DNA of 48,543 nucleotides from JAWOFN01 sp046497505 [NCBI: bacterium] (lineage in GTDB: Bacteria > Blakebacterota > Blakebacteria > Blakebacterales), in contig JAWOFN010000089.1 in assembly GCA_046497505.1 (NCBI GenBank), positions 1 to 48,543 of the forward strand, given 5' to 3'. Within the stretch, counting starts at the first letter, position 1. The number at the start of each line of letters is the position of its first letter. Position numbers and translations under genes: made by a program. Under the pieces are notes generated by a model. That model had not been told where the DNA came from. It saw only the letters and a list, made by a program, of their open reading frames with translations, and ran no database searches. Positions 1 to 24,944 of this stretch are shown in pieces.

Positions 1-508
1 GGACGATGGCATCGTACGCCCCCTCCCGCATCTTCCGGATGCGGGTGGGGACGTTCCCCCTGAGGTCGGCGAGCTCCAGGTCGGGACGCCAGCGGGCCAG
101 CAGGGCCCGGCGGCGGAGGCTGCTCGTACCCACACGGGTCCCCCCGGGGAGTTCGTCCACCCCGACCTCCTCGGGAGCCAGCAGCACGTCCCGGGGGTCC
201 TCCCGTTCCAGGACGGCCCCCACGGTCAGCCCGGAGGGCTGGTCGGTGGCCAGGTCCTTCAGACTGTGCACGGCCAGGTCCACCTGCTCGTCCAGCAGGG
301 CCTGCTCGATCTCCTTGGTGAAGAAGGCCTTGCCGCCCACCTGGGAGAGGGGCACGTCGACGATGACGTCCCCTTCGGTCTTGATGATGACGATCTCCAC
401 CTCGGGTCCCTCGGGGAGGGCGCGGAGGAGGCCGGCCACGTGGTCGGCCTGCCAGCGTGCGAGCTGGCTCCCGCGGGTCCCGATGCGGAGGGTCTGGGGG
501 GCACTCAT
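1..508 (-). CDS. hemC: Porphobilinogen deaminase (hydroxymethylbilane synthase), 3' end cut by the window edge
   Basis: HemC polymerises four porphobilinogen molecules to hydroxymethylbilane in the cytoplasmic tetrapyrrole pathway. The minus-strand reading starts MSAPQTLRIGTRGSQLARWQ, the family's N-terminal signature. It continues with QVGGKAFFTKEIEQALL, the substrate-site stretch AVHSLKDLAT and TSSLRRRALL, all typical of domains 1 and 2. About 169 codons are visible of the roughly 310 usual, so the cysteine that carries the dipyrromethane cofactor lies outside the window. The ATG at 508 overlaps the hemA stop (ATGA), so the two genes are probably translationally coupled in a HemX/CcsA-like, hemA, hemC operon. 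Confidence 0.96.
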   Translation of the reverse strand, partial: MSAPQTLRIGTRGSQLARWQADHVAGLLRALPEGPEVEIVIIKTEGDVIVDVPLSQVGGKAFFTKEIEQALLDEQVDLAVHSLKDLATDQPSGLTVGAVLEREDPRDVLLAPEEVGVDELPGGTRVGTSSLRRRALLARWRPDLELADLRGNVPTRIRKMREGAYDAIV

Positions 509-1821: not shown

Positions 1822-1823
1822 GA

Positions 1824-2705
1824 TCAGATGAAGCTGTGGAAGGACTTGAGGAACAGGTTCACGGCGAAGGAGGAGAACACCATGAGGACGAAGGCGGCGA
1901 TGGAGAGCCAGGCCAGCCAGCGGGTGGGCCATTTGAAGAGCCAGCGGCCCCAGACGCAGATCCCGTAGAGGAACCAGACCACCAGGGTGCTCAGGAACTT
2001 GGGGTCGGTCAGGAAGCTGCCGGTGAGCTGGCCGGACTGCTGGAGACTCACCGACCACACCGCGCCCAGGATGATGGCCAGGGTGAGGGTGATCCAACCG
2101 AAGCTCAGGGCGGTGGAGGTCAGGCGTCCCAGGATCTCCAGGCTGGGCAGGCGCTGGTAGATCAGGCCCACCCGGTGTCCCTTCAGCTCCCGGTAGAGGA
2201 GGATGTAGAGGGTGCCGTAGACCGCCGCGATGGCGAAGGCGGCGTAGCCCAGCAGGGCCGCGCTCACGTGGAACCCGAAGAGGGAGGAGCGCAGGATCGG
2301 CGCCACCTCGGTGGTATGGGTCACGAAGGCGCTGGAGACGATCTGGAAGAAGAGGGCGGGGGCGAGGAGGAAGACCCCGGTGGCCTTGTCGTTCAGGATC
2401 GACTCCAGCACCAGGTAGACCACGGTCAGCGCGAAGGCGACGAAGGAGAAGGCCTCCCACACGTTGGCGATGGGCACGTGGCGGTAGGCGATGGTCTCCA
2501 GCACCAGGTAGACCAGGTGGAGACCGGCTACGGTCCAGGCCACCGGGGTGACCGACTCCCGGCTCCAGTCGGGGGCGCTCACGAAGAAGACCAGGTAGTT
2601 CAGTACGGCCAGGAGATAGCCCAGGGGGAGCAGGATGTTGAGGAGCTCGAGGAGTACCAGCACGACGGGCCGTCCGTTCCTTCTTGGCGTCAGCCCGGGC
2701 CTCAC
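1824..2705 (-). CDS. ccsA: CcsA/HemX-family cytochrome c assembly membrane protein
   Basis: A 293-residue polytopic membrane protein with about eight hydrophobic segments, matching the CcsA/CcmC/HemX superfamily. Family features include HVPIANVWEAFSF and the conserved His in FHVSAALLGYAAF. The tryptophan-rich WWD motif (normally ...WSWDPKE...) is degenerate and reads GSFLTDPKFLSTLVVW, keeping only DPK and the later Trp. With hemA and hemC directly downstream, a HemX-like role (modulating HemA or heme handling) is as likely as heme export for cytochrome c assembly; the sequence does not decide. The start used is GTG at 2705; no ATG occurs in the first part of the frame. It is the first gene of the hem operon. 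Confidence 0.82.
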   Translation of the reverse strand: MRPGLTPRRNGRPVVLVLLELLNILLPLGYLLAVLNYLVFFVSAPDWSRESVTPVAWTVAGLHLVYLVLETIAYRHVPIANVWEAFSFVAFALTVVYLVLESILNDKATGVFLLAPALFFQIVSSAFVTHTTEVAPILRSSLFGFHVSAALLGYAAFAIAAVYGTLYILLYRELKGHRVGLIYQRLPSLEILGRLTSTALSFGWITLTLAIILGAVWSVSLQQSGQLTGSFLTDPKFLSTLVVWFLYGICVWGRWLFKWPTRWLAWLSIAAFVLMVFSSFAVNLFLKSFHSFI

Positions 2706-13313: not shown

Positions 13314-13865
13314 CTATGGGCTGTGCCACCCCCAGAAATCGCCGTAGAAGTCCCGGATGCGGCGGGCCTCCTCCTGGGTGATGGTCGACCCGGGGGTCTG
13401 GACCATCTCCATGATCACATCCCAGCGTTCCTTCGGGCTCATGATGGCCAGTTCCTTCAGCCGGCTGATCTCGTGGCAGTGCGCGCACTTCATGAAGGTC
13501 AGGCCGGCCTCCAGCCGCGGGATCTGCTCCTCCGCGATGCCGGCGCCCTCCATGTCGGCCATGCGGGCCACCACGTCGGCCACATCTCCGGTCATGCCGT
13601 GGGCCTTCGTGAAAGACTCGCTGGTGTGGCAGTCGGTGCACTCCTGCTCCAGGGCGGCCATAGCGGGGTTCGCCGGTCCGATGTTCACGGCCAAATTCTT
13701 CAGGTCCTGCTTGGTGGCCAGCTCGCTCCGCTGGTCCACGATCTCGCCGTGCAGGCTGATGACCATGTGGACCAGGAAGAGCAGCAGGATGACTCCCAGG
13801 ACCCCGAGCCATGTCGCGAGCATCCGCGAGCCGCTGCCCAGCCGCGTCTTCTCCTGATTCTCCAT
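13314..13865 (-). CDS. Membrane-anchored diheme cytochrome c (module copy 1)
   Basis: A 183-residue protein with one N-terminal transmembrane anchor (WLGVLGVILLLFLVHMVISL, about 19-38) and a periplasmic domain carrying two CxxCH heme c sites (CTDCH and CAHCH). It also has the conserved tail DFYGDFWGWHSP. I do not recognise a named family. Conserved His residues outside the CxxCH motifs, such as that in AHGMTGD, could be distal ligands. It is the last gene of a three-gene minus-strand module, 24 nt after the NrfD-like gene, with GGAGGAATGAG before its ATG. It probably takes electrons from, or gives them to, the FeS/NrfD pair. A clear paralog lies at 19752-20306. Confidence 0.85.
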   Translation of the reverse strand: MENQEKTRLGSGSRMLATWLGVLGVILLLFLVHMVISLHGEIVDQRSELATKQDLKNLAVNIGPANPAMAALEQECTDCHTSESFTKAHGMTGDVADVVARMADMEGAGIAEEQIPRLEAGLTFMKCAHCHEISRLKELAIMSPKERWDVIMEMVQTPGSTITQEEARRIRDFYGDFWGWHSP

Positions 13866-13889
13866 CTCATTCCTCCTTGCGGCTTCGGG

Positions 13890-15209
13890 CTAGCTGGAAC
13901 GGGCGGCTCTCAGGGCCGCCTGCTCCATGGGTGATCGGCCGATGGCCTCGTGGTCCAGCTGTTCCTCGTAGACCGGGAAGTACTGGACGATGAGGCGGAA
14001 CGCCAGCAGTCCCATGGCGATGAGGCCGATGCTCACCACGTACTCGAGCCACATCGGGTAGTAGGTGGGGTACTCGGGGATATCCATCGCGATCATGGTC
14101 ACCCCCACCCGGTGGACCGTGATGGCCACCACGCTGGCGATGCTGGCGAGCAGCAGGGTGACCTTTCGCTTCATGGCGTCCGGGTTGGCGTAGAGGGCCA
14201 GGGAGATGATGAGCAGGTGCATCTCCAGCCAGAACCAGAGCGCGTCCATCGAGACGCTCACCGTCTGCATGACCACCCCCCGTCCCACCAGGTCGGCCAG
14301 CCGTACCAGGATGTAGAACCCGATGACGTAGGGCATGGCCTTGCTGATCCCGAGCAGCAGGTCCATCTCAGGCTCCCGCCCCCGGATCTTCGGGGTGAGC
14401 AGCCGCTCCAGGACCACCATGCTGGGTCCCACCATGACCGCCGAGACGAAGAAGATGATGGGCAGGAAGGGGGAGTACCAGATGGGGCTCATCTTGTCCA
14501 CGATGAGGAAGAGTCCCCCCAGGGTGGACTGGTGGAGGGTGCTGAACATGATCCCCGCCATGATGAGCAGCAGGGGCATCTGGAGGTCGCGGGGCATGAT
14601 GCCCGCCCGCATCATCATCTCCCATGCCACCAGGATGGCCGCCACGATCGCGGCCCAGAGGACCGAGCTGGTCATGACGAAGGTGAAGAAGGCGAGCATG
14701 ACGATGATGAGGGCCGGGACCCACTGGTGGAAGAGCACCATGGCCCGCTTCAGGTCGAACTTCTCCAGTACCACGGGCAGGAACTCCAGGACCAGCACGA
14801 AGCTGTACATCATCACGCACCACGCCACCTCGAACATGGGGGAGTGGTGGTTCCAGCTGATGATGGCCCAGGGGAGGTTCCAGGGACGGCCCAGGTCCAC
14901 GATGAGGGCCGCGATGAAGAGTATGTAGCCCAGCAGGCCGGCCAGGATGGCCGAGCGGGCCACGCCGTGCATCCTGTGCCCGCCGAAGATGTGGATCACA
15001 CCGGCCATGACGAACCCGCCGGCCGCCAGGGCGATCTGGGTGAGTTTGTTCACTCCGGTGAGGAAGCCCCAGGCGTACCCGTCGGTGAGGTTGGTGGCCG
15101 CCCCCAGTCCGAAGATGAAGCGATATGCGATGGCCGCCGCCCCGATGACGGAGAGTGCGACGAGGATCTTCAGGCCCGGCGTCCATTCGAGCTTCTTACG
15201 CGGGGTCAT
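13890..15209 (-). CDS. NrfD/HybB-type quinone-reactive membrane subunit (module copy 1)
   Basis: A 439-residue integral membrane protein with about ten transmembrane segments, matching the NrfD/PsrC/HybB family that exchanges electrons between the quinone pool and an FeS partner. Recognisable stretches are TNLTDGYAWGFLTG, LAAGGFVMAGVIHIFGG, LIVDLGRPWNL, SPMFEVAWCVMMY and MPLLLIMAGIMFSTLHQS. The ATG at 15209 overlaps the stop of the FeS-protein gene (ATGA), so translation is probably coupled. NrfD-like proteins carry no heme; electrons would pass through the 4x[4Fe-4S] protein to the diheme cytochrome. The paralog is at 20334-21677. Confidence 0.92.
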   Translation of the reverse strand: MTPRKKLEWTPGLKILVALSVIGAAAIAYRFIFGLGAATNLTDGYAWGFLTGVNKLTQIALAAGGFVMAGVIHIFGGHRMHGVARSAILAGLLGYILFIAALIVDLGRPWNLPWAIISWNHHSPMFEVAWCVMMYSFVLVLEFLPVVLEKFDLKRAMVLFHQWVPALIIVMLAFFTFVMTSSVLWAAIVAAILVAWEMMMRAGIMPRDLQMPLLLIMAGIMFSTLHQSTLGGLFLIVDKMSPIWYSPFLPIIFFVSAVMVGPSMVVLERLLTPKIRGREPEMDLLLGISKAMPYVIGFYILVRLADLVGRGVVMQTVSVSMDALWFWLEMHLLIISLALYANPDAMKRKVTLLLASIASVVAITVHRVGVTMIAMDIPEYPTYYPMWLEYVVSIGLIAMGLLAFRLIVQYFPVYEEQLDHEAIGRSPMEQAALRAARSS

Positions 15210-16192
15210 GACTCATCTCCTTCCTCGATCTCCTGGAGATGCTCCGCACCCTCGTCCAGGTGATGCTGCCTGTTCACCATCCAGGCCACAGCTCCCAGGG
15301 AGAGCGCCAGGGCGCTCAGCACGTAGGGTACGCTCACCATGGACTTGTGCGTGTAGTCCCGGTACGACCGGAAGGGCACGTTCTGCCGGTATCCCAGCTC
15401 ATCGAACGGGCGCCCCGCGATGTGGAGGAGGTTCGTGCCCCCCGCCTCGTACTCACCGTATATGTGATGCACGTAGCTCCTGGGAGAGGCGACGACCCGA
15501 TCCTTGGCCTCCTTCAGCAGGTCCTCCCGGGTGCCCCACATGAGCGAGCCGGTGGGACAGGCCGCCACGCAGGCGGGGGCGTTCCCTTCGGCCTGCCGGT
15601 CGAAACACATGTCGCACTTGCGGATGTAGGGGTTCCAGGTGTCCCACTCGAAGCGGGGTACCAGGAAGGGACAGGCCAGCTCGCAGTACCGGCACCCCAG
15701 GCACCGTTCCGCGTTGTAGATGACCGGACCCTCGTCGGTCTTCTCCAGGGCGTACACCGGACAGCTCGAGACACAGGCCGGTTCGATGCAGTGCATGCAC
15801 TGCACCTTGCCCCACGAACCGGTGGAGGGGTCCCCTTCGACCTGATGGAAGGTGACGTAGGTCCACACGTCTGTGCTCAGTGCCCGGGCGTCCTCGGCGG
15901 GGCGCCCGTCGAAGATCTCCTCTTCGGTGCGCCCCAGCTCGTTGTCCTCTTCGCAGGCGATCTCGCACGCCCGGCATCCGATGCACAGGGTGGCATCGTA
16001 GAGGATGGCCTTCTGGCCGGCTCCCTCTTCCGCCAGCTCTGCCAGGCGGTCCTTCTGGTGTTCCGGGAGGTCGTCGATCTGCGTGGCCTCGGCCTCCGCA
16101 GGGAGGGCTGTGAAAGCGGCGGTCGCGGTGAGGAAACCGGCCGTCGCTGTCGGGCCCCGTTTCAGGAAGCTCCGTCGCGAACAGGTATCCAT
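15206..16192 (-). CDS. Tat-exported 4x[4Fe-4S] ferredoxin-like subunit, HybA/NrfC type (module copy 1)
   Basis: A 328-residue protein with a twin-arginine signal (SRRSFLKRG) and four Cys clusters: CIGCRACEIAC, CMHCIEPACVSSCP, CLGCRYCELACP, and CDMC followed by CVAACPTG. Together these can hold four [4Fe-4S] centres, as in HybA, NrfC, PsrB and DmsB. A hydrophobic helix near the C-terminus (VPYVLSALALSLGAVAWMV) resembles the HybA membrane anchor. A His/Glu-rich tail follows. It is the first gene of the module and overlaps the NrfD gene by 4 nt. No hydrogenase, molybdopterin or nitrite-reductase subunit lies nearby, so the usual catalytic partner is missing from this locus. Confidence 0.92.
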   Translation of the reverse strand: MDTCSRRSFLKRGPTATAGFLTATAAFTALPAEAEATQIDDLPEHQKDRLAELAEEGAGQKAILYDATLCIGCRACEIACEEDNELGRTEEEIFDGRPAEDARALSTDVWTYVTFHQVEGDPSTGSWGKVQCMHCIEPACVSSCPVYALEKTDEGPVIYNAERCLGCRYCELACPFLVPRFEWDTWNPYIRKCDMCFDRQAEGNAPACVAACPTGSLMWGTREDLLKEAKDRVVASPRSYVHHIYGEYEAGGTNLLHIAGRPFDELGYRQNVPFRSYRDYTHKSMVSVPYVLSALALSLGAVAWMVNRQHHLDEGAEHLQEIEEGDES

Positions 16193-16222
16193 GATTCGAG
16201 TTCCCTCTATGGTGATGGGCCG

Positions 16223-16236
16223 TTGTGGAATTTCAG
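16223..16236 (-). promoter_or_regulatory. Element shared with the other module's upstream region
   Basis: TTGTGGAATTTCAG (plus-strand reading) lies 31 nt from the FeS-protein start. A near-identical TTGTGGAGTTTCCAG is at 22691-22705, 40 nt from the start of the copy 2 FeS gene. It may be a regulatory site or leader sequence kept since the duplication. Confidence 0.4.
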
Positions 16237-16256
16237 GCCCGCTAGTCTGCTATTAA

Positions 16257-16273
16257 CTTAAGGCCCCCTTAAG
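16257..16273. promoter_or_regulatory. Palindromic candidate operator CTTAAGG-CCC-CCTTAAG
   Basis: A perfect 7-bp inverted repeat with a 3-nt spacer in the AT-rich gap between divergent FeS-protein and 4-TM-protein genes. It is about 65 nt from the minus-strand start and 185 nt from the plus-strand start. The binding factor is unknown. Confidence 0.4.
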
Positions 16274-16286
16274 GGATGGCAATGTC

Positions 16287-16300
16287 AATCACACGTGATT
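16287..16300. promoter_or_regulatory. Palindromic candidate operator AATCAC-AC-GTGATT
   Basis: A perfect 6-bp inverted repeat with a 2-nt spacer, 13 nt beyond the CTTAAGG palindrome in the same intergenic region. Its size suits a dimeric helix-turn-helix regulator. It does not match the FNR consensus TTGAT-N4-ATCAA. Confidence 0.35.
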
Positions 16301-16459
16301 ACTGATAAAATGCCTGGACTACCTGACTTGCGTAAATATTCACTAATGCCGTGCATTTTGGAGTCACTGGTATTAAATTGATTGCTGAAGACGAACCTTG
16401 ATGACATGAACAGCTTCTCACACCGCACCCCCGGAGAGGGGTACGGAGGGCGGAAGGCC

Positions 16460-16906
16460 ATGGACCTGCTGAAGAGCCCGATCGAGCGCCTCAGGCTGCT
16501 CCTGGCGGCTGTGGCCCTGCACTCCCTGGTCGTGGGACTGGGCCTGATCCTGGTCCCTCCCGAGCTGATGCAGCGCTTCGGTTACGGTCCCTTCCAGGAG
16601 CGGTTCTTCGCCGTCCAGGCGGGTGTATTCCACTTCGTCATGGTCACCATGTACGCGCTGCCGGCCTGGCGTCTCGAGCGGTGGGAACCACTTGCAGAAC
16701 TTGCGATAATCGCCAAATTCATCGCGTTCGTGTTCCTCATCATCTATTACACATTCGTCGATGCCATCTGGGTGGTGCTCTTCTCCGGTCTCGCCGATGC
16801 CGCCATGGGAGCGCTCATCTGGATCGCCCTGCGCTCCTATCGCCGGTCCGATCCGCGGCACACCCCCGAGGGGGATCCCGCACGTCCGTTCGAAGAGGGC
16901 GGGTGA
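16460..16906 (+). CDS. Small four-helix integral membrane protein, function unknown
   Basis: A 148-residue protein with four predicted transmembrane segments (about residues 10-30, 45-65, 75-97 and 98-120). It has a basic SYRRSDPRH stretch after the last helix and an acidic hydrophilic C-terminus. I do not recognise the family. The open frame extends upstream, but ATG 16460 has GGAGGG 9 nt before it and the protein then begins just ahead of the first helix (MDLLKSPIERLRLLLAAVAL). It leads a plus-strand operon: 6 nt separate it from the epimerase-like gene, and the third gene overlaps that one. The operon sits between the two electron-transfer modules and is divergent from copy 1. Confidence 0.7.
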   Translation: MDLLKSPIERLRLLLAAVALHSLVVGLGLILVPPELMQRFGYGPFQERFFAVQAGVFHFVMVTMYALPAWRLERWEPLAELAIIAKFIAFVFLIIYYTFVDAIWVVLFSGLADAAMGALIWIALRSYRRSDPRHTPEGDPARPFEEGG

Positions 16907-16912
16907 TGCAAC

Positions 16913-18583
16913 ATGGCACAGCGTCTCCCCACCATCCTGGTCACAGGCGCCTCGGGATTCATCGGACGTAACTTCCTGGATGCGGTGAAGGATGATTTCC
17001 GCATCTACGCCGTGGCACGGCGTTCGGAAGAGAGCGCCGACATCCGTCCCCACCCCAACATCATCTGGATCCAGGCGGACATCTCCGACTGGTCGATGCT
17101 CAAGGCCATCACCTCCAACATCAAGGAGCAGGGGGGGGCGGACTTCATCCTCCACCTGGCGGGTTTCTACGATTTCACCTACGAGGACGACCCGGAATAC
17201 CTCAACACGAACGTGAACGGTACCCGGCACCTGCTGGAACTGGGCAAATGGCTCTGCGTGCGCCGCTTCGTGTTCGCCAGTTCCCTGGCCGCATGTCCCT
17301 TCCCCGAGGAGGGGGAGTACATCACCGAGGACACACCCTGTTTCGACGAGTTCCCCTACTCATGGAGCAAGCGGGTGGGGGAGGAGATGTGCGAGCAGTA
17401 CTCGGCGTGGTTCCCCTGCACCATCGTCCGGTTCGCGGCGGTCTTCAGCGACTGGGGGGAATACGCACCCCTCTACTCCTTTCTGAGGACCTGGCTCTCG
17501 AGCAGATGGGACAACAGGATCCTCGGGGGGAAGGGGCAATCCTCGGTCCCCTACATCCACGTGGACGACGTGTGCAGGATGCTGGTGAAGATCTTCCGCA
17601 TGAGCGACCGGCTGCCTGTCTTCGACACATACCACGCCACCCCGAAGGGGAGCACCACGCATAACGAGCTCTTCCGAGCGGCGAACCGGTACTACCGGGG
17701 CAGACCCCGGAAGCCGATCCACATACCCCGCCTCCTGGCCTATCCGGGGATGGTCATCCGCGAGCTCTTCGGCCAGCTCATCGGATCCCGTCCCTTCGAG
17801 CGCCTCTGGATGCTCAGGTACGTGGACCTGCGCCTGGATGCCGACAACACCCACACCCGCGAGATGCTGGACTGGGAACCCAGGCCCAGGCTGCACATCC
17901 TCCGGCGGCTCCTCTTCCTGGTGGCCCGGATGGTGAGTCAGCCGGAACTTTGGCGGCTCAAGAACGAGGCGGCCATGAAGCGGGTCTCGGTGAGGAGCAG
18001 CTTCCTGGTCTACCAGGTGCTGGACGGCCGCAAGGAGGAGCTGCTGGATCAGTTCCTCGCGATCGTGCGGAACCCGGCGCACGCCAACCTCTACCCGAAC
18101 TACCAGGGACTGAGCCCGGAGGATCTCCGGCGCTATACCCGGACCTTCTACGACCTGCTCCTCACAGCGCTCCGCACCGAGGAGCGGACGATGATCCTCA
18201 ACTACATCGAGGAACTGGTCCCACACCGGGCGGCGGCGTCCTTCGACGCCGCGGAGCTCAAGCGCTACCTCTCCACCCTGCACGACCTCATGGTGAGCTA
18301 CGCCCGGGAGGACGAACGCCTGGTCGAGCGGGAGGAGGACATCCACCTGCATATCACCATGACCCTGCAGCTGGCGAAGGACCACGTGGAACACCTCTTC
18401 GAACAGATCAGGGAACAGAGCAGGGGGATGGTGGAGGAAGAGGTGGACGAGGCCGAGATGCGGGAGGACCTGATCGGGCCCATGGAGGACCTGGAACGGC
18501 TGCTGGACCAGCTCAACATCTTCTACCGGCAGCCGGATGAGGATGAGGAGGATTCGGAAGGGGTCGCGGAGGTGAAGTCGTGA
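16913..18583 (+). CDS. NAD-dependent epimerase/dehydratase (extended SDR) with long C-terminal helical domain
   Basis: A 556-residue protein. Residues 1 to about 330 are an extended short-chain dehydrogenase: nucleotide-binding TGASGFIGRNF (10-20), ILHLAGFYDF, FASSLAACPFP, and the catalytic pair Tyr149-x3-Lys153 in YSWSK. This fold acts on nucleotide sugars or other NAD(P)-linked substrates. Residues about 345-530 form a hydrophilic, mostly helical extension absent from ordinary epimerases. It includes DGRKEELLDQFLAIVRNP and LSPEDLRRYTRTFYDLLLTAL, which loosely resembles RsbRD-type helical sensor domains (a weak inference). The tail is strongly acidic. The stop overlaps the GTG of the next gene (GTGA), so the epimerase and HAMP protein are probably made together. 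Confidence 0.82.
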   Translation: MAQRLPTILVTGASGFIGRNFLDAVKDDFRIYAVARRSEESADIRPHPNIIWIQADISDWSMLKAITSNIKEQGGADFILHLAGFYDFTYEDDPEYLNTNVNGTRHLLELGKWLCVRRFVFASSLAACPFPEEGEYITEDTPCFDEFPYSWSKRVGEEMCEQYSAWFPCTIVRFAAVFSDWGEYAPLYSFLRTWLSSRWDNRILGGKGQSSVPYIHVDDVCRMLVKIFRMSDRLPVFDTYHATPKGSTTHNELFRAANRYYRGRPRKPIHIPRLLAYPGMVIRELFGQLIGSRPFERLWMLRYVDLRLDADNTHTREMLDWEPRPRLHILRRLLFLVARMVSQPELWRLKNEAAMKRVSVRSSFLVYQVLDGRKEELLDQFLAIVRNPAHANLYPNYQGLSPEDLRRYTRTFYDLLLTALRTEERTMILNYIEELVPHRAAASFDAAELKRYLSTLHDLMVSYAREDERLVEREEDIHLHITMTLQLAKDHVEHLFEQIREQSRGMVEEEVDEAEMREDLIGPMEDLERLLDQLNIFYRQPDEDEEDSEGVAEVKS

Positions 18584-19641
18584 GCCCCGACCGCGACACC
18601 TTCCGGTTCTCACCCCTGGCCCAGGCCGGCGAGAGGGAAGAGAAGAAGCGGCCCAGTCTGCGGAGCCGGCTCCTCCTGGGTCTGCTGGCCCTCGCGCTCC
18701 TCATGGGGGCGGTCCTGGCGGTGATCCTGAGGCAGCAGGCCGTCACCGCTCGGGCGGACAGGACCTTCCACGAGGTGGTGGCCATCGAGACGCAGCTCCT
18801 CACCTGCCGCAGCATGGAAGGAGACTTCGTGGTGGGCGGCGACCAGGGGAGCCTACCCCGTCTCTACGCCGTCCTGGATACGATGGTGGCCCAGACCCGT
18901 GAGTTCGCGGAGCGGACGGAGGGGGGCATGGTGGGTGATCGGCTCCAGGCGCTCCAGCGAACCATCGTGGACTACTCCGCCACATTGAAGGTGCTCCTGG
19001 CCCAGGAGGAGATAGAGGGGGAGTACCGGGACAGCGCGGTGCTGGCGGACCTGGCAGATACCTACGCCACCCGCTGCCACGAGCTGATGAACGAGGTGCG
19101 GGAGGCCGCCTTCGCCGAGGCGGCGGAAGCCAGCCGGCAGGCGCGCCAGATCATCATCTTCTCCGTGGCGGCCGGGCTGCTCCTGGCCCTGGTGGTGGGG
19201 CTGTGGCTGATCCGCCGCATCGTGACCCCCATGGAATCCATCACCTCCCTGGCGGACCGGGTCCGGGAGGGGGATATCCAGGACATGGACGTGCAGTTCC
19301 GCGACATGGATATGGACGCCTTCACCACCCGGGAGAGCTACTCCATGGCCCGGGCGTTCCAGCGCCTGATCACCCGGATCCGGATGTCGGTGTCCAGCGA
19401 GTTGGGGCTCATGGACACCTACCACATGACGATGGTGGTCCTCATCGACCGTGCCCTGGGAAGGATCGGGCGGGCCATCATGGAACAGGCACGGGCCCAG
19501 GCAGGTTTCCAATCCATCGTGGAGATCACGCCGGAGAACATCGATCGGTTCATCGAGGCCCTGAGGGATGAGGCCGGGGAGAGGGTGGACGAGGAGCGGC
19601 TCGAGGTGCTCTTTCAGGCCCTCAAGGACCTGGAGGAATAG
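18580..19641 (+). CDS. HAMP-domain membrane sensor without a recognisable output domain
   Basis: A 353-residue protein. It has a cytoplasmic N-terminus, TM1 (about 30-50, LLLGLLALALLMGAVLAVIL), a periplasmic helical region of about 135 residues, and TM2 (about 188-209, IIIFSVAAGLLLALVVGLWL). A HAMP linker follows (PMESITSLADRVREGDI). The C-terminal ~90 residues (LMDTYHMTMVVLIDRALGRIG...) contain neither kinase, cyclase, phosphatase nor chemotaxis-signalling motifs. Membrane topology resembles chemoreceptors and histidine kinases. GGAGGTGA precedes the GTG start, which overlaps the epimerase stop. The signal is probably passed to a partner protein, perhaps the helical domain of the epimerase; this is inference. 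A strong terminator ends the operon. Confidence 0.82.
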   Translation: MSPDRDTFRFSPLAQAGEREEKKRPSLRSRLLLGLLALALLMGAVLAVILRQQAVTARADRTFHEVVAIETQLLTCRSMEGDFVVGGDQGSLPRLYAVLDTMVAQTREFAERTEGGMVGDRLQALQRTIVDYSATLKVLLAQEEIEGEYRDSAVLADLADTYATRCHELMNEVREAAFAEAAEASRQARQIIIFSVAAGLLLALVVGLWLIRRIVTPMESITSLADRVREGDIQDMDVQFRDMDMDAFTTRESYSMARAFQRLITRIRMSVSSELGLMDTYHMTMVVLIDRALGRIGRAIMEQARAQAGFQSIVEITPENIDRFIEALRDEAGERVDEERLEVLFQALKDLEE

Positions 19642-19678
19642 ACCCCGGGCCGATCCGACCGGGGGACCGCCGCAAGAA

Positions 19679-19718
19679 GGGAAGGCCCCTTCCGTCGTCG
19701 GACGGCAGGGGCCTTCCC
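19679..19718. terminator. Strong hairpin terminator between convergent operons
   Basis: GGGAAGGCCCCT (19679-19690) pairs perfectly with AGGGGCCTTCCC (19707-19718). The loop itself contains CCGTC/GACGG, which extends the structure. It lies between the HAMP gene and diheme cytochrome 2 and can serve both strands. Confidence 0.8.
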
Positions 19719-19751
19719 TCACGTACGCTGAGCCCGGAAGGGATCAGAACA

Positions 19752-20306
19752 TCACGGGCTGTGCCAGCCCCAGAAGTCGCCGTAGAAGTCGCGGATGCGG
19801 CGGGCGTCCTCCTGGGTGATGGTGGAACCCTCCTTCTTCATCATGCCGATGATGACCTCCCACCGCTCCGCCGGGCTCAGGATGGCCAGCTCCTTCAGCC
19901 GGTCCGAGCTGTGGCAGTGGGAGCACTTCATGAAGGTGAGAGCCGCCTCCGCCCGCGGGATCTCCTCGGTGCCGAAGTGGGCCCCCGAGAGCTGTGCCAT
20001 GCGGGTGACCAGGTCGTGCACGTCCTCGGTCATGTTGTGGGCCGCCGCGAAGGTCTCCTTCGTATGGCAGTCGGTGCAGGTCCCCTCCAGGGCCGCCATG
20101 GCCGGGTCGGAGGGGCCGAGGTTCACCGCCAGGTTGGTGAGGTCCTCCTTGGTGGCCAGCTCGTCACGCAGATGGCTCACGTCCTGCTGCAGTCCGACCA
20201 GGATCGAGGTCATGAAGATGACCAGGATGAAGACCGCCACGCTCATGAAGTTGGCGAATATCCTGAGTCGGGTCCGGGAACCGGATCCCTGGTTGGTGCT
20301 TTCCAT
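19752..20306 (-). CDS. Membrane-anchored diheme cytochrome c (module copy 2)
   Basis: A 184-residue paralog of the 13314-13865 protein, with an N-terminal anchor (MSVAVFILVIFMTSILVGL), two CxxCH sites (CTDCH and CSHCH) and the shared tail DFYGDFWGWHSP. Long stretches are near-identical between the copies (ELATKEDLTNLAVNLGP; GSTITQEDARRIRDF), while the anchor has diverged. It lies 27 nt downstream of NrfD copy 2 with GGAGGTAGTAACG before the ATG, as last gene of the module. The role proposed is periplasmic electron exchange with the FeS/NrfD pair. Confidence 0.85.
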   Translation of the reverse strand: MESTNQGSGSRTRLRIFANFMSVAVFILVIFMTSILVGLQQDVSHLRDELATKEDLTNLAVNLGPSDPAMAALEGTCTDCHTKETFAAAHNMTEDVHDLVTRMAQLSGAHFGTEEIPRAEAALTFMKCSHCHSSDRLKELAILSPAERWEVIIGMMKKEGSTITQEDARRIRDFYGDFWGWHSP

Positions 20307-20333
20307 CGTTACTACCTCCAGTCGCTCAGCATG

Positions 20334-21677
20334 CTACCCTGCGGGGGCCGTGTTCGCCACGGCTTCGGGAGTCTTCTCCGATGCCGTGAGGTCCTCCGCG
20401 GCGGGTTCCTCCTCGTAGATGGGAAGGAAGTGGATGGCGAGTCGGAATGCGATGAGCCCCCAGCTCAGGATGCCCACCGTGATCATGATCTCGGTCCAGG
20501 CGGGATAATAGGCCGCGTACTCGGGCACGTCGATACCCACCATGGACACACCGACCCGGTGGGTCACCAGCGCGAAGATGACCGCCAGGGAGGCGGTGAA
20601 TATCCCCTTCGCCCTCGCCATGACCTCCGGAGTGGTGTAGAGGACCCAGGCGAAGGCCAGCAGGCCGATCTCCAGCCACCACCAGAAGGCATCGAAGGTG
20701 AAGGTCAGGGTGCCGCCCACAGCGCCGCGCACCACCATATCGCCCACCCGGAGCAGCAGGTAGATACCGATGATGTAGGGCATCGCCTTGCCCAGGCCCT
20801 GGAGCAGGCGGGTCTCGGGTGTGCGGCGGAAGGCCCAGGCGGTGGCCAGGGCCTCGAAGGAGACCATGGCCGGAGCCACCATCACGGCCGAGATGAAGAA
20901 GAGCAGCGGCAGGATGGGGGAGTACCAGAGCGGGTCCAGTTTGTCCACGATCAGGTAGAGGGTCCCCAGGCTGGACTGATGCATCACGCTGAACATGATG
21001 CCCGCCATGATCAGGAGCAGGGGCATCTGCTTGTCGCGGGGCATGATGTCCAGGCGCATGAGCACCTCCCAGCCCGTCATGAGGACGAAGATGGCTGCGG
21101 TCCAGGCGATGCTGCTGTGGGACATGGCATAGGTCCACAGGGTGACCATGCCGATGACCACGAAGGGGACCAGCTCGTGGAAGAGCTTCATGAGCCGGTC
21201 CAGCCTCAGCCGCTTGAAGACCGCCGGCAGGAACTCCAGGAAGAGCACGGTGGTGTACATCATCACGCACCACGCCACCTCGAACATGGGAGAGGCCTGG
21301 TTCCAGGAGTAGATCGCCTTGTAGAGGTTCCACGGCCTCCCCAGGTCCACCATCAGGCTGCCGATGAAGAGCAGGTAGCCGAGGAGGGCGGTGAGGATCG
21401 CCGGGCGGGCCAGCGAGTGATACTTCTTGCCCCCGAAGATGTGGACGACGCCCGCCATCACGAAGCCGCCGGCCGCCAGGGCGATGCCGGCGAGGATGTC
21501 GATGCCGATCCAGAAACCCCAGGGGTAGCCGTCGGAGAGGTTGGTCACCCCGCCGATGCCGGCGAAGAACCAGCGGTAGATGATCAGCCCCAGCCCGAAG
21601 AGGGCCAGTCCCACGATCAGGATGGTGTCAGGGGTGGCCTGCAGCCGTGCCTCGCGTATGCTCTTGGGGACCTTCAC
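20334..21677 (-). CDS. NrfD/HybB-type quinone-reactive membrane subunit (module copy 2)
   Basis: A 447-residue polytopic membrane protein, paralog of 13890-15209. It shares NLSDGYPWGFWIGIDI, LAAGGFVMAGVVHIFGGKK, LMVDLGRPWNL, SPMFEVAWCVMMYTTVL, RDKQMPLLLIMAGIMFSV and THRVGVSMVGIDVPEY. The start is GTG at 21677, overlapping the FeS gene's stop (GTGA), whereas copy 1 uses ATG at the same kind of overlap. The C-terminal 30 residues are hydrophilic and differ from copy 1. It is expected to oxidise or reduce membrane quinone and pass electrons to the 4x[4Fe-4S] subunit. Confidence 0.92.
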   Translation of the reverse strand: MKVPKSIREARLQATPDTILIVGLALFGLGLIIYRWFFAGIGGVTNLSDGYPWGFWIGIDILAGIALAAGGFVMAGVVHIFGGKKYHSLARPAILTALLGYLLFIGSLMVDLGRPWNLYKAIYSWNQASPMFEVAWCVMMYTTVLFLEFLPAVFKRLRLDRLMKLFHELVPFVVIGMVTLWTYAMSHSSIAWTAAIFVLMTGWEVLMRLDIMPRDKQMPLLLIMAGIMFSVMHQSSLGTLYLIVDKLDPLWYSPILPLLFFISAVMVAPAMVSFEALATAWAFRRTPETRLLQGLGKAMPYIIGIYLLLRVGDMVVRGAVGGTLTFTFDAFWWWLEIGLLAFAWVLYTTPEVMARAKGIFTASLAVIFALVTHRVGVSMVGIDVPEYAAYYPAWTEIMITVGILSWGLIAFRLAIHFLPIYEEEPAAEDLTASEKTPEAVANTAPAG

Positions 21678-22651
21678 GACGCACCTCCCTCGTCTTCGTC
21701 ACGGGAGGCCCTCACCCGCGGCGGCTCCTCATCGTGCTCCTCGTCGTGGCCCCCCGCCACCCAGGCCACCGCTCCCAGTGTGAAGGCCATGCCGGTCATG
21801 ATGTACGGGATGGTCCCCATCACGGGGCGGGTGTAGTCGCGGTAGGAGCGCATGGGGAGGTTGCGGCGGTAGCCCAGGTCGTCGAAGGGCTGGGCCGCCA
21901 TGTGGAGGAAGTTGGTCCCTCCCGCCTCCTCCTCGCCGTAGATGTGATGGATGTAGCCCCGAGGGTTGTCCACGATACGCCCGTGCGCTTCTCGGAGCAG
22001 CTCCTCCCGGGTCCCCCACATGAGGGAGCCGGTGGGGCAGGACTCGACGCAGGCGGGGGCATCCCCCTCCAGCTGGAGGTCGTAGCACATGTCGCACTTG
22101 GTGATGCGCGGGTTCAGGTCCTCCCACTCGAACCGGGGCACCAGGAAGGGACACGCCATCATGCAGTAACGGCAACCCAGGCAGAGGTCGGAGTGCCACA
22201 TGACCGGGCCCTCCGGGGTCTTCTCCAGGGCGCTCACCGGACAGCTGGACGCGCAGGCGGGTTCGATGCAGTGCATGCACTGGACCTTCCCGAAGGAGGC
22301 GGTCGTCGGGTCGGCCTCCGCCTGGTGGAAGGTCACATAGGTCCAGCAGTCGTTGCCGAGGGCCCGGGCGTCCTCTGCCGGCCGGCCCTCGAAGATCTCG
22401 TCGTCGGTACGTCCGAGCTGGTTGTCTTCGTTACAGGCGATCTCGCACGCCCGGCACCCGATGCACAGGGTGGCATCGTAGAGCATGGCGTTCTGGTCGG
22501 CGGCCTTCGCGGCCAGCACCTGCGGCTCCCCTCCACCGTCGTGGTCCCCGTGCTCCTGGGAGGCCACGGCGGCCAGGGGGGTCGCTACGCTGACGAGAGC
22601 GGCGGTCTTGCCGCTCTTTCGCAGAAAACCTCGCCGTGAGAGGGTACTCAT
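21674..22651 (-). CDS. Tat-exported 4x[4Fe-4S] ferredoxin-like subunit, HybA/NrfC type (module copy 2)
   Basis: A 325-residue paralog of 15206-16192. It has a twin-arginine signal (SRRGFLRKSG), four Cys clusters (CIGCRACEIAC; CMHCIEPACASSCP; CLGCRYCMMACP; CDMC with CVESCPTG) and a C-terminal hydrophobic helix (IPYIMTGMAFTLGAVAWVAG). A His/Asp-rich segment (HGDHDGGG) after the signal and an acidic, His-containing tail (HDEEHDEEPP) are specific to this copy. It is the first gene of module 2 and divergent from the 11-heme cytochrome gene, with 289 nt between them. As in copy 1, no catalytic oxidoreductase subunit accompanies it. Confidence 0.92.
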   Translation of the reverse strand: MSTLSRRGFLRKSGKTAALVSVATPLAAVASQEHGDHDGGGEPQVLAAKAADQNAMLYDATLCIGCRACEIACNEDNQLGRTDDEIFEGRPAEDARALGNDCWTYVTFHQAEADPTTASFGKVQCMHCIEPACASSCPVSALEKTPEGPVMWHSDLCLGCRYCMMACPFLVPRFEWEDLNPRITKCDMCYDLQLEGDAPACVESCPTGSLMWGTREELLREAHGRIVDNPRGYIHHIYGEEEAGGTNFLHMAAQPFDDLGYRRNLPMRSYRDYTRPVMGTIPYIMTGMAFTLGAVAWVAGGHDEEHDEEPPRVRASRDEDEGGAS

Positions 22652-22695
22652 CGCTCACATCCCTCCGGGCAGGCTTGTCGTGGACGGCTATTGTG

Positions 22696-22715
22696 GAGTT
22701 TCCAGTCTGAAACTC
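22696..22715. promoter_or_regulatory. Palindromic candidate operator GAGTTTC-N6-GAAACTC
   Basis: A perfect 7-bp inverted repeat with a 6-nt spacer, 45-64 nt upstream of module 2. It overlaps the TTGTGGA(A/G)TTTC element shared with module 1. Confidence 0.4.
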
Positions 22716-22836
22716 GCATCAACAATAAAACCGCCCTGCGGTGGGGGAAAGAGAAAAAATTCACAAATTCGAGAATTATCATAGGTTCTCAAGTTGCATG
22801 CCAGGAGAGGTCTCTCCGGAAAATAAGGGTGATTAG

Positions 22837-22873
22837 TCCGAAATTGCCTGATTCGGAGTTGATAATCCGAAAT
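22837..22873 (+). promoter_or_regulatory. Repeated TCCGAAAT sites upstream of the 11-heme cytochrome
   Basis: TCCGAAAT occurs at 22837-22844 and 22866-22873 as direct repeats 29 nt apart. An inverted version, ATTCGGA, lies between them at 22851-22857. The second copy is inside the spacer of the candidate promoter at 22859-22886, where a bound regulator would affect transcription. Confidence 0.4.
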
Positions 22874-22886
22874 AGGTGGCTAGATT
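22859..22886 (+). promoter_or_regulatory. Candidate sigma-70 promoter of the 11-heme cytochrome gene
   Basis: TTGATA (22859-22864), 16 nt, then TAGATT (22881-22886). Transcription would start near 22893, giving a leader of about 48 nt. It lies in the AT-rich divergent region shared with module 2. Confidence 0.5.
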
Positions 22887-22940
22887 GGGTCGTGACAGAC
22901 CCTGGACCCACGGGTTTTCAGCAACTACGGGAGAATCCTG

Positions 22941-24944
22941 ATGAGCGCGAATCCCGCCCGCCCCCGGCCGGCGTCCTCTTCGTCCGGCCGGTCACGTCCC
23001 GAGGCTGCTCCGGTCCTCCTGCTGGCCGGTCTCCTCATGCTCCTGGTCCTCCCGGGTCCCGCCCGGGCCCAGGACGTCGAGAGCTGCATGATCTGCCACG
23101 GCGAAGCCGCCATGTTCGAGGGGCTCCCCAACGAGGAGACCCTCACCCTGGAACCGCAGACCTACGAGGACTCGATCCACGGTGAGATGGGTTTCAGCTG
23201 TGTGGACTGCCACATGGACATGGTGGGGGTGGAGGACCTCCACGATGTGCCGGTCGAGCCGGTGGACTGCGGGATCTGCCACGCCGAGACCGCGCGGATC
23301 TATGAAGGCAGCCTCCACGGGTACGCGCTCCAGCGGGGGAACGACAGGGCCCCCGCCTGTGTCTCGTGCCATGCTCCCGAGAAGGAGCCCCACGACATCC
23401 TGTCCCCCCGGAACCCGCGCTCTACCGTGCACCAGGTACGCGTGCCTGACACCTGCGCCACATGTCACGGCAAGGCGGGTCTGCTCACCGACGAGTACGT
23501 GAAACTGCCCGAGTCGTTCAAGGACTACTCGCAGTCGGTGCACGGTCAGGGGGCGACCCACGGCATCGCCGCCGCCGCCTCCTGTGCGGACTGCCACGAG
23601 GTCCACGACCTGAAGTCGGCAGCCGATCCGCAGTCCCCGATCAACTTCCGGAACGTCTCCACCACCTGCGGTCAGTGCCACCCGGACATCCAGGTCCAGT
23701 ACGACGCCTCGATCCACGGCCGGGCGCTCCAGGCGGGGGTCACCGACAGCCCGACCTGTACCGACTGTCACGGAGAGCATCTCATCCTCTCCCCCTCCGA
23801 TCCCCAGGCCAAGACGTACGCCAGCCGACTGGCCACGGAGACCTGCGGTGCGTGTCATGACGATCCGGTGATCATATCCAAGTACGACCTTCAGGGCGGG
23901 GTGGTGGGCTCCTACACCGACTCCTACCACGGCTGGGCGGTCCGCCGGAACTACGAGGACGCGGCCACCTGCGTGAGCTGCCACACCGCCCACATGGTGC
24001 TCCCAGAGAGTGCTCCGGCCAGCACGGTGAGCAAGGAGAACGTGGTGAGCACCTGCCAGTCGTGCCACCCGGATGCCACCATGAACTTCGCCCTCAGCTA
24101 TACCCACGAGGCGGCCTCCATCACCGCCAACCCCATCAACCGAACGATCCGGGCCATCTACTTCCTGCTCATCGCGCTGGTCATCGGCGGGATGGTGGTG
24201 CATAACCTGGTGGTCATGAACTTCTACATGGTGGAGAGCCGCCGGAGGCAGGAGCACACCTCCTGGGTGATGCGGTTCGACAAGAGTCAGATCGTCCAGC
24301 ACCTGCTGCTGACCGTCTCCTTCATCGGGCTGGTGATCACCGGTTTCGCACTGCGCTTCCCGGACGCCCTCTGGGTGCGGTGGCTGCTCGAACTGGGGAT
24401 GACCGAGCAGGTCCGGTCCGACCTGCACCGCATCCTGGCGGTGGTCCTGGTGTTCACCTCCGGCTACCACATGTATTACATATTCGCCACGCGCAGGGGC
24501 TGGGAGGAGTTCAAGGCGATGCTCCCCCGGGTCTCCGACCTGAAGGATTTCGTCCAGAACGTCCGCTATCATACCTGGCAGAGCAAGCGCGAGGTGAAGT
24601 TCGGCCGGTACGACTATTCCCAGAAGGCGGAGTACTGGGCCCTGGTGTGGGGCACGATCCTCATGATCATCACCGGTTTCGTGCTCTGGTTCCCCGCCCA
24701 GGCGGTGAAGGTCTTCCCCCACTGGATCGTCACGGCGAGTCAGACCATCCACTACTACGAGGCGTGGCTGGCCACCCTGGCCATCATCGTGTGGCACTTC
24801 TTCTTCGTGATCTTCCACCCCGAGGAGTACCCCATGAGCTGGACCTGGCTCACCGGGCGCATGTCGGAGGAATCGGTGAAGAAGCACCACACCCAGTGGT
24901 ACGAGGACGAGATCGCCGGTGCCTCCTTCGGTGAGGAGGAGTAG
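22941..24944 (+). CDS. Eleven-heme cytochrome c fused to a b-type cytochrome membrane domain
   Basis: A 667-residue protein. After a signal peptide (LLLAGLLMLLVLPGPARA) comes a periplasmic domain to about residue 395 with eleven CxxCH motifs: CMICH, CVDCH, CGICH, CVSCH, CATCH, CADCH, CGQCH, CTDCH, CGACH, CVSCH and CQSCH. From about residue 400 a membrane domain follows with several helices and conserved His (VVHNLVV, VQHLLLTVSF, LHRILAVV, YHMYYIF, IVWHFFFVIFHPEEYPM), resembling cytochrome b561/formate dehydrogenase gamma subunits. The layout recalls Geobacter CbcL, an inner-membrane quinol-oxidising cytochrome, but with more c-type motifs than I recall for CbcL. It could pass electrons from quinol to periplasmic or outer acceptors. 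Divergent from module 2; GGGAG lies before ATG 22941. Confidence 0.9.
   Translation: MSANPARPRPASSSSGRSRPEAAPVLLLAGLLMLLVLPGPARAQDVESCMICHGEAAMFEGLPNEETLTLEPQTYEDSIHGEMGFSCVDCHMDMVGVEDLHDVPVEPVDCGICHAETARIYEGSLHGYALQRGNDRAPACVSCHAPEKEPHDILSPRNPRSTVHQVRVPDTCATCHGKAGLLTDEYVKLPESFKDYSQSVHGQGATHGIAAAASCADCHEVHDLKSAADPQSPINFRNVSTTCGQCHPDIQVQYDASIHGRALQAGVTDSPTCTDCHGEHLILSPSDPQAKTYASRLATETCGACHDDPVIISKYDLQGGVVGSYTDSYHGWAVRRNYEDAATCVSCHTAHMVLPESAPASTVSKENVVSTCQSCHPDATMNFALSYTHEAASITANPINRTIRAIYFLLIALVIGGMVVHNLVVMNFYMVESRRRQEHTSWVMRFDKSQIVQHLLLTVSFIGLVITGFALRFPDALWVRWLLELGMTEQVRSDLHRILAVVLVFTSGYHMYYIFATRRGWEEFKAMLPRVSDLKDFVQNVRYHTWQSKREVKFGRYDYSQKAEYWALVWGTILMIITGFVLWFPAQAVKVFPHWIVTASQTIHYYEAWLATLAIIVWHFFFVIFHPEEYPMSWTWLTGRMSEESVKKHHTQWYEDEIAGASFGEEE

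What the first reader, a model, noticed from the sequence alone, without database searches (positions are those of the whole stretch)
13314..24944. Two copies of an FeS/NrfD/diheme-cytochrome module with no catalytic subunit, beside an 11-heme cytochrome
Two three-gene sets of identical order and strand (Tat 4x[4Fe-4S] protein, NrfD/HybB protein, anchored diheme cytochrome c) flank another operon. An 11-heme/cytochrome b fusion is divergent from one of them. NrfD plus FeS plus multiheme cytochrome units are known in CbcSTU, Qrc, alternative complex III and DsrJOP, but those have different cytochromes or extra catalytic subunits. Here none is present, and the diheme protein ending DFYGDFWGWHSP matches no named subunit I know. 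Together the genes could form a branched quinone-to-cytochrome electron conduit. That function is inference.
Basis: partly seen in the sequence, partly recalled or inferred. Interest (0 to 1): 0.75.

Follow-up and report, generated by a model that had tools for sequence, protein, structure and literature searches.

The report
Quinone module with diheme cytochrome
A probably Gemmatimonadota genome carries two copies of a membrane machine that likely moves electrons between the quinone pool and a small two-heme cytochrome; the machine is built from known kinds of parts, but this combination looks rare and new.

Summary
In detail: two FeS–NrfD–diheme gene sets (13314–16192, 19752–22651), an 11-heme/cytochrome b fusion divergent from the second, and no hydrogenase or molybdoenzyme found in the window.

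FeS and NrfD score best to HmcB/HybA and HybB/HmcC, below cut-offs, with all 16 cluster cysteines and most HybB functional residues. The diheme protein is membrane-anchored, has two repeated c domains and reaches no Pfam or NCBIfam cut-off. Homologues are in four Gemmatimonadota genomes; diheme-type NrfD and FeS each form one clade (100/100). Related FeS–NrfD pairs sit beside other cytochromes, hydrogenases or GcvH-like proteins, so the pair is a swappable module.

Best reading: a menaquinol:cytochrome c oxidoreductase with the diheme protein as electron outlet, working like Nhc/Hmc or a stripped-down alternative complex III. Complex formation, direction and potentials are inferred. Three relatives tested also encode ActD (alternative complex III) and COX1-family oxidase, so this is an extra branch.

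The CbcL-like 11-heme fusion is far more widespread and only loosely tied to the set. Copy 1 has Asn where all 29 other NrfDs compared have the quinone-site Asp, suggesting the copies diverged. New variant of a known kind.

The parts
13314..13865 (-). Copy 1 diheme cytochrome: N-terminal membrane anchor and coiled coil, then two CXXCH domains, C-terminus DFYGDFWGWHSP
   Evidence: two CXXCH; alignment of 6 homologues; AF2 was run on the copy 2 protein only, pLDDT 65
13890..15209 (-). Copy 1 NrfD (HybB/HmcC-like quinone-site membrane subunit); Asn at the position of HybB Asp58
   Evidence: Pfam NrfD; NCBIfam PRK10881 252 bits, HmcC 216 bits, both below cut-off; residue alignment
15206..16192 (-). 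Copy 1 Tat-exported 4x[4Fe-4S] protein, HmcB/HybA-like, C-terminal membrane helix
   Evidence: HmcB 265 bits, HybA 214 bits, below cut-off; 16 of 16 cluster Cys
16382..19641 (+). Intervening three-gene run: membrane protein 16382-16906, NAD-epimerase-like protein 16913-18583 with a weak RsbRD_N-like C-terminal match, HAMP-like membrane protein 18580-19641; probably not part of the system
   Evidence: Pfam; no tblastn match at 1e-5 in the other loci then held
19752..20306 (-). Copy 2 diheme cytochrome
20334..21677 (-). Copy 2 NrfD; keeps the Asp equivalent to HybB Asp58, has Lys at the HybB Glu155 position
21674..22651 (-). Copy 2 Tat-exported 4x[4Fe-4S] protein
   Evidence: HmcB 271 bits, HybA 221 bits, below cut-off; 16 of 16 cluster Cys
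22652..22940 (.). Divergent intergenic region between copy 2 and the 11-heme gene: one sigma-70-like match on each strand, one terminator-like match on the minus strand
   Evidence: promoter-like 2 found, shuffles mean 0.2; terminator-like 1 found, shuffles mean 0.3; consensus matches only
22941..24944 (+). 11-heme c / cytochrome b fusion, CbcL-like in architecture; neighbour, not a proven partner
   Evidence: 11 CXXCH and Ni_hydr_CYTB; 11 further invariant His in the c domain in nine aligned sequences, window included

Best explanation
Each set encodes a three-subunit menaquinone-linked cytochrome c oxidoreductase. NrfD holds the quinone near the periplasmic face; the Tat-exported FeS protein carries electrons between the quinone site and the periplasm; the anchored diheme c protein stands where hydrogenase or a multiheme cytochrome stands in Hyd-2 or Hmc/Nhc and exchanges electrons with a periplasmic partner. 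Both c domains resemble small class-I domains with invariant Met residues as candidate axial ligands, so I favour the direction menaquinol to cytochrome, as in alternative complex III. It would run beside ACIII and the 11-heme/cytochrome b protein, not instead of them. Shown: gene content, order, recurrence, conserved residues, repeat of the c domain. Inferred: complex formation, heme ligands, potentials, direction, acceptor.
For: FeS and NrfD match HmcB/HybA and HybB/HmcC profiles at E 2e-63 to 9e-86. Of 25 HybB sites listed in PMC8076601, copy 2 matches 18 and copy 1 matches 15; of the five residues whose replacement in HybB mattered (D58, R89, Y99, E148, H184), copy 2 has 5 and copy 1 has 4. 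A Tyr in the CRYC motif, which from the paper's description I take to be QrcC Y113 (QrcC itself was not aligned), is kept in all five diheme-type FeS proteins. The genes recur together: FeS-NrfD-diheme in window x2, G001, G190 and (across two abutting contigs) G002; NrfD-diheme in G497, whose contig ends inside NrfD. Diheme-type NrfD and FeS are each one clade, 100/100. The two c domains align to each other (hhalign P 8.5e-7) and have weak, below-cut-off matches to SorB and, for copy 1, to cytochrome c-551 of green sulfur bacteria. Met103, Met126 and Met155 are invariant in 6 of 6.
Against: No biochemical evidence. The AF2 model of the diheme protein is weak (pLDDT 65) and has no PDB match at E<=0.001, so the class-I fold rests on weak sequence matches; Pfam also gives weak matches to the bis-His type families Cytochrome_C7 (E 0.0019, 0.015) and MtrC/MtrF (E 0.015, 0.0059). 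Single-sequence scores between the two c domains beat shuffles clearly in 2 of 5 homologues, marginally in 1 and not in 2. The nearest studied NrfDs, HybB and QrcD, work as quinone reductases (PMC6303296, PMC13059093), which argues for the other direction. Some of the kept residues are not essential in relatives: QrcD D120A kept about 66% and R358A about 50% of activity, and altering HybB S129 had little effect (PMC13059093). ActD and COX1-family genes are present in all 3 relatives tested, so no unmet need for a complex III is visible.
Confidence: 0.5

Rival explanations
1. Same complex, opposite direction: the diheme protein takes electrons from a periplasmic cytochrome or enzyme and the FeS-NrfD pair reduces menaquinone with protons from the cytoplasm, as in Qrc and perhaps Nhc.
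For: Best profiles are HybB and HmcC, judged likely electrogenic and close to the quinone reductase QrcD in PMC6303296 (passages). N-side residues R89, Y99, Y141, E148 and H184 are kept in both copies.
Against: No low-potential donor enzyme is linked, as far as tested. The c protein has two hemes, not the many of Nhc, Hmc or Qrc. Copy 1 lacks the Asp that QrcD needs for quinone reduction. The direction of Hmc itself is unsettled: PMC4215793 (passages) argues for flow towards the periplasm.
Confidence: 0.25
2. Branched conduit: the sets and the 11-heme/cytochrome b protein work together as one electron route out of the membrane.
For: The 11-heme fusion is divergent from copy 2 in the window and convergent with the set in G002; a 19-heme/cytochrome b fusion is divergent from the set in G001 and G002. 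G190 also holds both fusions, on another contig.
Against: 48 of 248 phylum genomes hold a relative of the fusion at E<=1e-20, but only 2 of 249 hold the diheme protein. In G190 and G001 the 11-heme gene is on another contig. Homologues in G160, G168 and G186 (the last a partial match) lie outside any set, and these genomes gave no diheme match.
Confidence: 0.2
3. The set is the membrane part of an enzyme whose catalytic subunit is encoded elsewhere in the genome and docks on the diheme or FeS protein.
For: FeS-NrfD pairs often serve a catalytic partner (PMC6303296). The window's own genome is not held, so unlinked genes cannot be excluded; G190 has a molybdoenzyme gene on another contig.
Against: No hydrogenase or molybdoenzyme found in the window or the relatives' loci. 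The diheme gene, not an enzyme, is the constant neighbour of NrfD in six of six loci.
Confidence: 0.1

Closest known systems
Nhc/Hmc complexes of Desulfovibrio (NhcABCD, Hmc)
   Same: FeS protein plus NrfD plus a periplasmic c cytochrome, no classical catalytic subunit; the FeS protein's best profile is HmcB
   Different: Two-heme anchored cytochrome instead of a 9- or 16-heme one; scores far below the HmcB and HmcC cut-offs; no HmcE/HmcF-like family in the window's Pfam lists
E. coli hydrogenase-2 (HybOABC)
   Same: HybA-like FeS with C-terminal helix, HybB-like NrfD, most listed functional residues kept
   Different: No HybO or HybC in the window or the relatives' loci; diheme protein in their place; 27% (copy 1) and 30% (copy 2) identity to HybB
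Alternative complex III (ActABCDEF)
   Same: FeS and NrfD feeding c-type hemes; proposed direction quinol to cytochrome c
   Different: Only the FeS part of ActB matches; no ActD family in the window's Pfam lists; three relatives carry ActD at a separate place
CbcL of Geobacter (for the 11-heme neighbour only)
   Same: Multiheme c domain, apparently all bis-His, fused to a membrane cytochrome b domain (CbcL from passages of PMC9129911)
   Different: 11 rather than 9 c hemes; b domain of the FdnI/Ni_hydr_CYTB type; direct homology to CbcL not tested

Membership tests
NrfD/FeS dimeric redox module (NrfCD/QrcCD/HybAB superfamily) | NrfD-family membrane protein | tested here: met
   Pfam NrfD above cut-off in both copies; absence of cofactors not testable here
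NrfD/FeS dimeric redox module (NrfCD/QrcCD/HybAB superfamily) | Conserved Ser near the quinone entry and Asp/His/Glu in TMH2 | tested here: met
   HybB S129 and D109 equivalents in w1, w2, G001, G002, G190
NrfD/FeS dimeric redox module (NrfCD/QrcCD/HybAB superfamily) | Partner FeS protein with up to four clusters | tested here: met
   16 of 16 cluster Cys in 5 of 5
Hmc/Nhc complex | HmcB and HmcC at curated cut-off | tested here: not met
   HmcB 265/271 bits vs 420; HmcC 216/244 vs 550
Hmc/Nhc complex | 16-heme HmcA or nine-heme NhcA as the cytochrome subunit | tested here: not met
   Partner has two hemes; the 11-heme neighbour scores 30 bits to HmcA vs cut-off 400
Hydrogenase-2 | HybO and HybC linked | tested here: not met
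   tblastn negative at diheme loci, positive in hydrogenase control loci
Alternative complex III | ActB with molybdoenzyme-like part, ActD, ActE, ActF | tested here: not met
   Only residues 596-832 of ActB match; no ActD family in the window's Pfam lists
SorB / class-I monoheme c family | Curated SorB cut-off and class-I fold with Met ligand | tested here: inconclusive
   SorB 23.6 and 27.3 bits vs 93; fold search negative with a weak model; invariant Met103 and Met155; weak C7-type matches as well
CbcL-like quinol oxidoreductase (11-heme protein) | Multiheme bis-His c domain fused to diheme cytochrome b | tested here: inconclusive
   11 CXXCH, 11 extra invariant His in the c part and further invariant His in the membrane part; AF2 pLDDT 40; quinone activity not testable
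FeS-NrfD-diheme set | The three proteins form one complex and react with quinone | not testable with these tools
   single-chain prediction only; no biochemistry

The most novel reading that the evidence does not exclude
A further type of quinol:cytochrome c oxidoreductase in Gemmatimonadota, beside bc-type complexes and ACIII: a minimal FeS-NrfD-diheme c complex, duplicated in this organism so that copy 1 (Asn for the quinone-site Asp) can only oxidise quinol while copy 2 stays reversible.
Probability: 0.15. Interest if true: 0.7.

Novelty: new variant of a known kind. Interest (0 to 1): 0.45.

Why it matters
A survey of 326 Gemmatimonadota genomes found bc1 cytochrome b in 23% and ACIII in under 10%, and named unrecognised complex III subunits or modules as one possible reason (PMC9426454, section read). 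FeS-NrfD modules with swapped cytochromes are candidates for such modules, and this set is a small, testable one, although it is rare and three of its holders do have ActD. The natural Asp-to-Asn change in one copy also gives a ready test of what that residue does for direction.

Tried and rejected
Plasmid tblastn with the copy 2 diheme protein: no match at E<=0.1. PHROGs: no match. PDB sequence search: nothing for NrfD at E<=0.01, best for the diheme profile E 0.0073. AF2 of the 11-heme protein, pLDDT 40: discarded, no fold search made. Foldseek with the diheme model: 52 matches up to E 10, none at E<=0.001, not used. First gene calls for L006 followed the wrong strand because of high G+C and were redone with trained codon use. 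First five-row trees failed on a thread setting and were redone.

Considered and rejected: filing the set as Hmc, Nhc, Hyd-2 or ACIII (defining features tested and not met); the diheme protein as a phage or plasmid gene; the intervening genes as part of the system (no match in the other loci then held).

Rows dropped: G445 (E 9.9e-4, 56 positions of one heme domain) was not counted as a diheme homologue. Of the 45 genomes with an HmcC match, neighbourhoods were read for 24 loci in 23 genomes besides G001 and G190; three further fetched loci (L069, L070, L071) were not put in that count; the remaining matches were weak, all but one (G011, 62 bits, at a contig end) below 35 bits. In the tree the label 'signalling' for L048 and L053 was assumed: their partner gene was not seen. 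Gene calls in relatives are from my own simple codon-usage script, and the print-out was cut (L057-L059 re-read).
Full report
What is there. Seven genes match the finding at the stated coordinates. Each FeS gene overlaps its NrfD gene by 4 bp and the diheme gene follows within 30 bp. The two copies are old relative to each other: 62% (FeS), 52% (NrfD) and 59% (diheme) protein identity. In an unrooted concatenated five-row tree the two window copies are split from the other three with 97 (SH-aLRT) / 94 (bootstrap); single-gene support for that split is lower: FeS 86/80, NrfD 74/77, diheme 92/88. In the larger trees they are sisters in FeS (95/92) and only weakly in NrfD (80/50).

Family placement. 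NCBIfam ranks HmcB then HybA for FeS, and HybB (PRK10881) then HmcC for NrfD, all below cut-off. The FeS proteins keep all 16 cluster cysteines and a Tat-like motif. Of 25 HybB sites listed in PMC8076601 (passages and two sections read), copy 2 NrfD matches 18 and copy 1 matches 15. Kept in both are D109, S129, E133, H85, R89, Y99, Y141, E148, H184, S186, K198, R265, E291 and R329. H200 is lost in all five diheme-type proteins compared. At HybB D58 (QrcD D70), copy 1 has Asn, while copy 2, G001, G002, G190, HybB and the 24 other NrfDs aligned have Asp (29 of 29); the G497 contig does not reach this site. PMC13059093 (passages and part 1 of 2 of the discussion read) reports that QrcD D70A/H abolished function, and that HybB D58A lost menaquinone reduction but still allowed H2 evolution. 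It also reports that QrcD D120A and R358A keep about 66% and 50% of activity, so not every kept residue is essential. Copy 2 has Lys where the others have Glu at E155. So the two copies probably differ in function; how is inference.

The diheme protein. The copy 2 model has an N-terminal helix (residues 9-57: membrane anchor plus coiled coil) and two CXXCH domains with a similar run of helices (pLDDT 65). The domains align to each other by profile (P 8.5e-7); single-sequence scores are reached by 0, 1 and 36 of 1000 shuffles for three homologues and by 153 and 419 for the other two. Weak, below-cut-off matches are SorB (domain 1 of copy 1, domain 2 of copy 2) and cytochrome c-551 (copy 1); the profile's best PDB match is 7uea chain C, 'Cytochrome c', E 0.0073 (that this is the green sulfur reaction-centre cytochrome is recalled). 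Pfam also gives weak C7-type and MtrC/F-type matches, E 0.0019 to 0.015, which point to bis-His families instead. Met103, Met126, Met155, His90 and the C-terminal DFYGxFWGWH are invariant in 6 of 6. That Met103 and Met155 are axial ligands is inference, and so is the higher potential that would follow.

Distribution. A close-relative scan of the genome collection (84,980 species) found two loci, both Gemmatimonadota MAGs. Profile searches found: 2 of 249 in the phylum sample, 2 of 288 in the order of G001, 2 of 154 in the order of G190, one of them a weak partial match not counted, 3 of 394 in a class sample, and 1 of 43 in the order of G497. The sets overlap. Counted homologues are in G001, G002, G190 and G497; handles run to at least G497. 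Other phyla could not be searched by profile, so rarity is shown for this phylum only. That the window itself is from Gemmatimonadota is inferred from these relatives.

Neighbourhoods. In G001 the set is divergent from a 19-heme/cytochrome b fusion, followed by an unassigned 494-aa protein, 9-heme, class-I, 9-heme, Rieske, cytochrome b and 4-heme genes. In G002 two contigs abut inside NrfD with a 14-base overlap; together they give a 19-heme fusion, FeS-NrfD-diheme, then a convergent 11-heme fusion, 21-heme, 9-heme, cytochrome b, a weakly Rieske-like protein (below cut-off) and an 8-heme gene. In G190 the set has no cytochrome gene beside it on a 13-kb contig. In G497 only NrfD-diheme is on the 4.5-kb contig. 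No hydrogenase or molybdoenzyme was found at these loci; the hydrogenase queries hit hydrogenase loci of other genomes, while the molybdoenzyme query's only control was itself.

The FeS-NrfD pair is a swappable module in this phylum. HmcC searches hit 45 of 248 genomes at E<=0.001, none over the cut-off. In 24 neighbourhoods other than the diheme ones the partner was: NiFe hydrogenase 5, 12- to 13-heme cytochrome 5, NrfD fused to a 6-heme domain 3, anchored tetraheme 2, a nearby 11-heme protein 1, and a GcvH-like protein (with sensor and regulator genes where the contig reaches) 8, of which two (L048, L053) were assigned without seeing the partner. In the NrfD and FeS trees the diheme, 13-heme, 6-heme and GcvH groups are each one side of a branch, while the hydrogenase group falls in two. 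This supports reading the diheme protein as the docking cytochrome of the pair.

The 11-heme fusion. Nine aligned sequences, window included, share 11 extra invariant histidines in the c domain, enough for 11 bis-His hemes. It resembles CbcL, described in PMC9129911 (passages read) as a six-helix diheme b domain with nine bis-His c hemes. Relatives are in 48 of 248 genomes at E<=1e-20. In G160, G168 and G186 (the last a partial match) it lies near a two-CXXCH protein, CCP/MauG by Pfam for G160, and these genomes gave no diheme match. It is therefore a system of its own that is only sometimes adjacent.

Function. FeS-NrfD pairs pass electrons between quinone near the periplasmic face and periplasmic partners (PMC6303296, passages read). 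With the diheme protein as third subunit, the most likely activity is menaquinol:cytochrome c oxidoreduction. Direction is open: the nearest studied relatives reduce quinone, whereas ACIII runs the other way (PMC13059093). All three relatives tested have COX1-family genes and ActD; in G001 ActD lies in a run that looks like ActB to ActF (names other than ActD from size and order, recalled). G497 was not tested. The set is thus an addition to the chain.

In print. Searches for NrfD with Gemmatimonadota and cytochrome and for NrfD-like with diheme cytochrome c and quinol found no paper; the listings show none whose title or abstract start describes this set. Most subscription papers and all preprints are outside that library.

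Noticed in passing
L047, L049-L052, L054 (e.g. L052:6922-10595, L050:7023-10720): FeS-NrfD pairs sit beside one or two GcvH-like proteins (Pfam GCV_H confirmed for two proteins of L052 and one of L050; others by similar sequence start) and, in L050, L051, L052 and L054, a sensor-like protein and a response regulator. A lipoyl-type carrier next to a quinone module is unexpected and unexplained.
   Followed up: partly
L008, L070, L093, L094, L097, L098, L099: Recurring Gemmatimonadota multiheme loci with various subsets of: 11-heme and 19-heme cytochrome b fusions, 21-heme, 9-heme, 8-heme, cytochrome b, weakly Rieske-like, an unassigned 450-500 aa protein and 12- to 16-heme cytochromes; may be an extracellular electron transfer route.
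   Followed up: partly
L056:8890-10836, L059:7857-9827, L060:8330-10201: NrfD fused in one chain to a six-CXXCH domain: another cytochrome-swapped version of the module.
   Followed up: partly
L095:5286-9481, L096, L100: 11-heme/cytochrome b fusion near a two-heme protein (CCP/MauG in L095) and a fructose-bisphosphatase gene (Pfam run on L095 only; the others by similar sequence start).
   Followed up: partly
window 13890-15209: Copy 1 NrfD has Asn at the HybB Asp58 position, Asp in all 29 other NrfDs compared.
   Followed up: partly
window 16913-18583: Epimerase-like protein with a weak RsbRD_N match at its C-terminus, between the two copies; no match in the other loci then held.
   Followed up: partly
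window 505-2663: hemA (glutamyl-tRNA reductase) next to a cytochrome c assembly protein gene, both on the minus strand.
   Followed up: no
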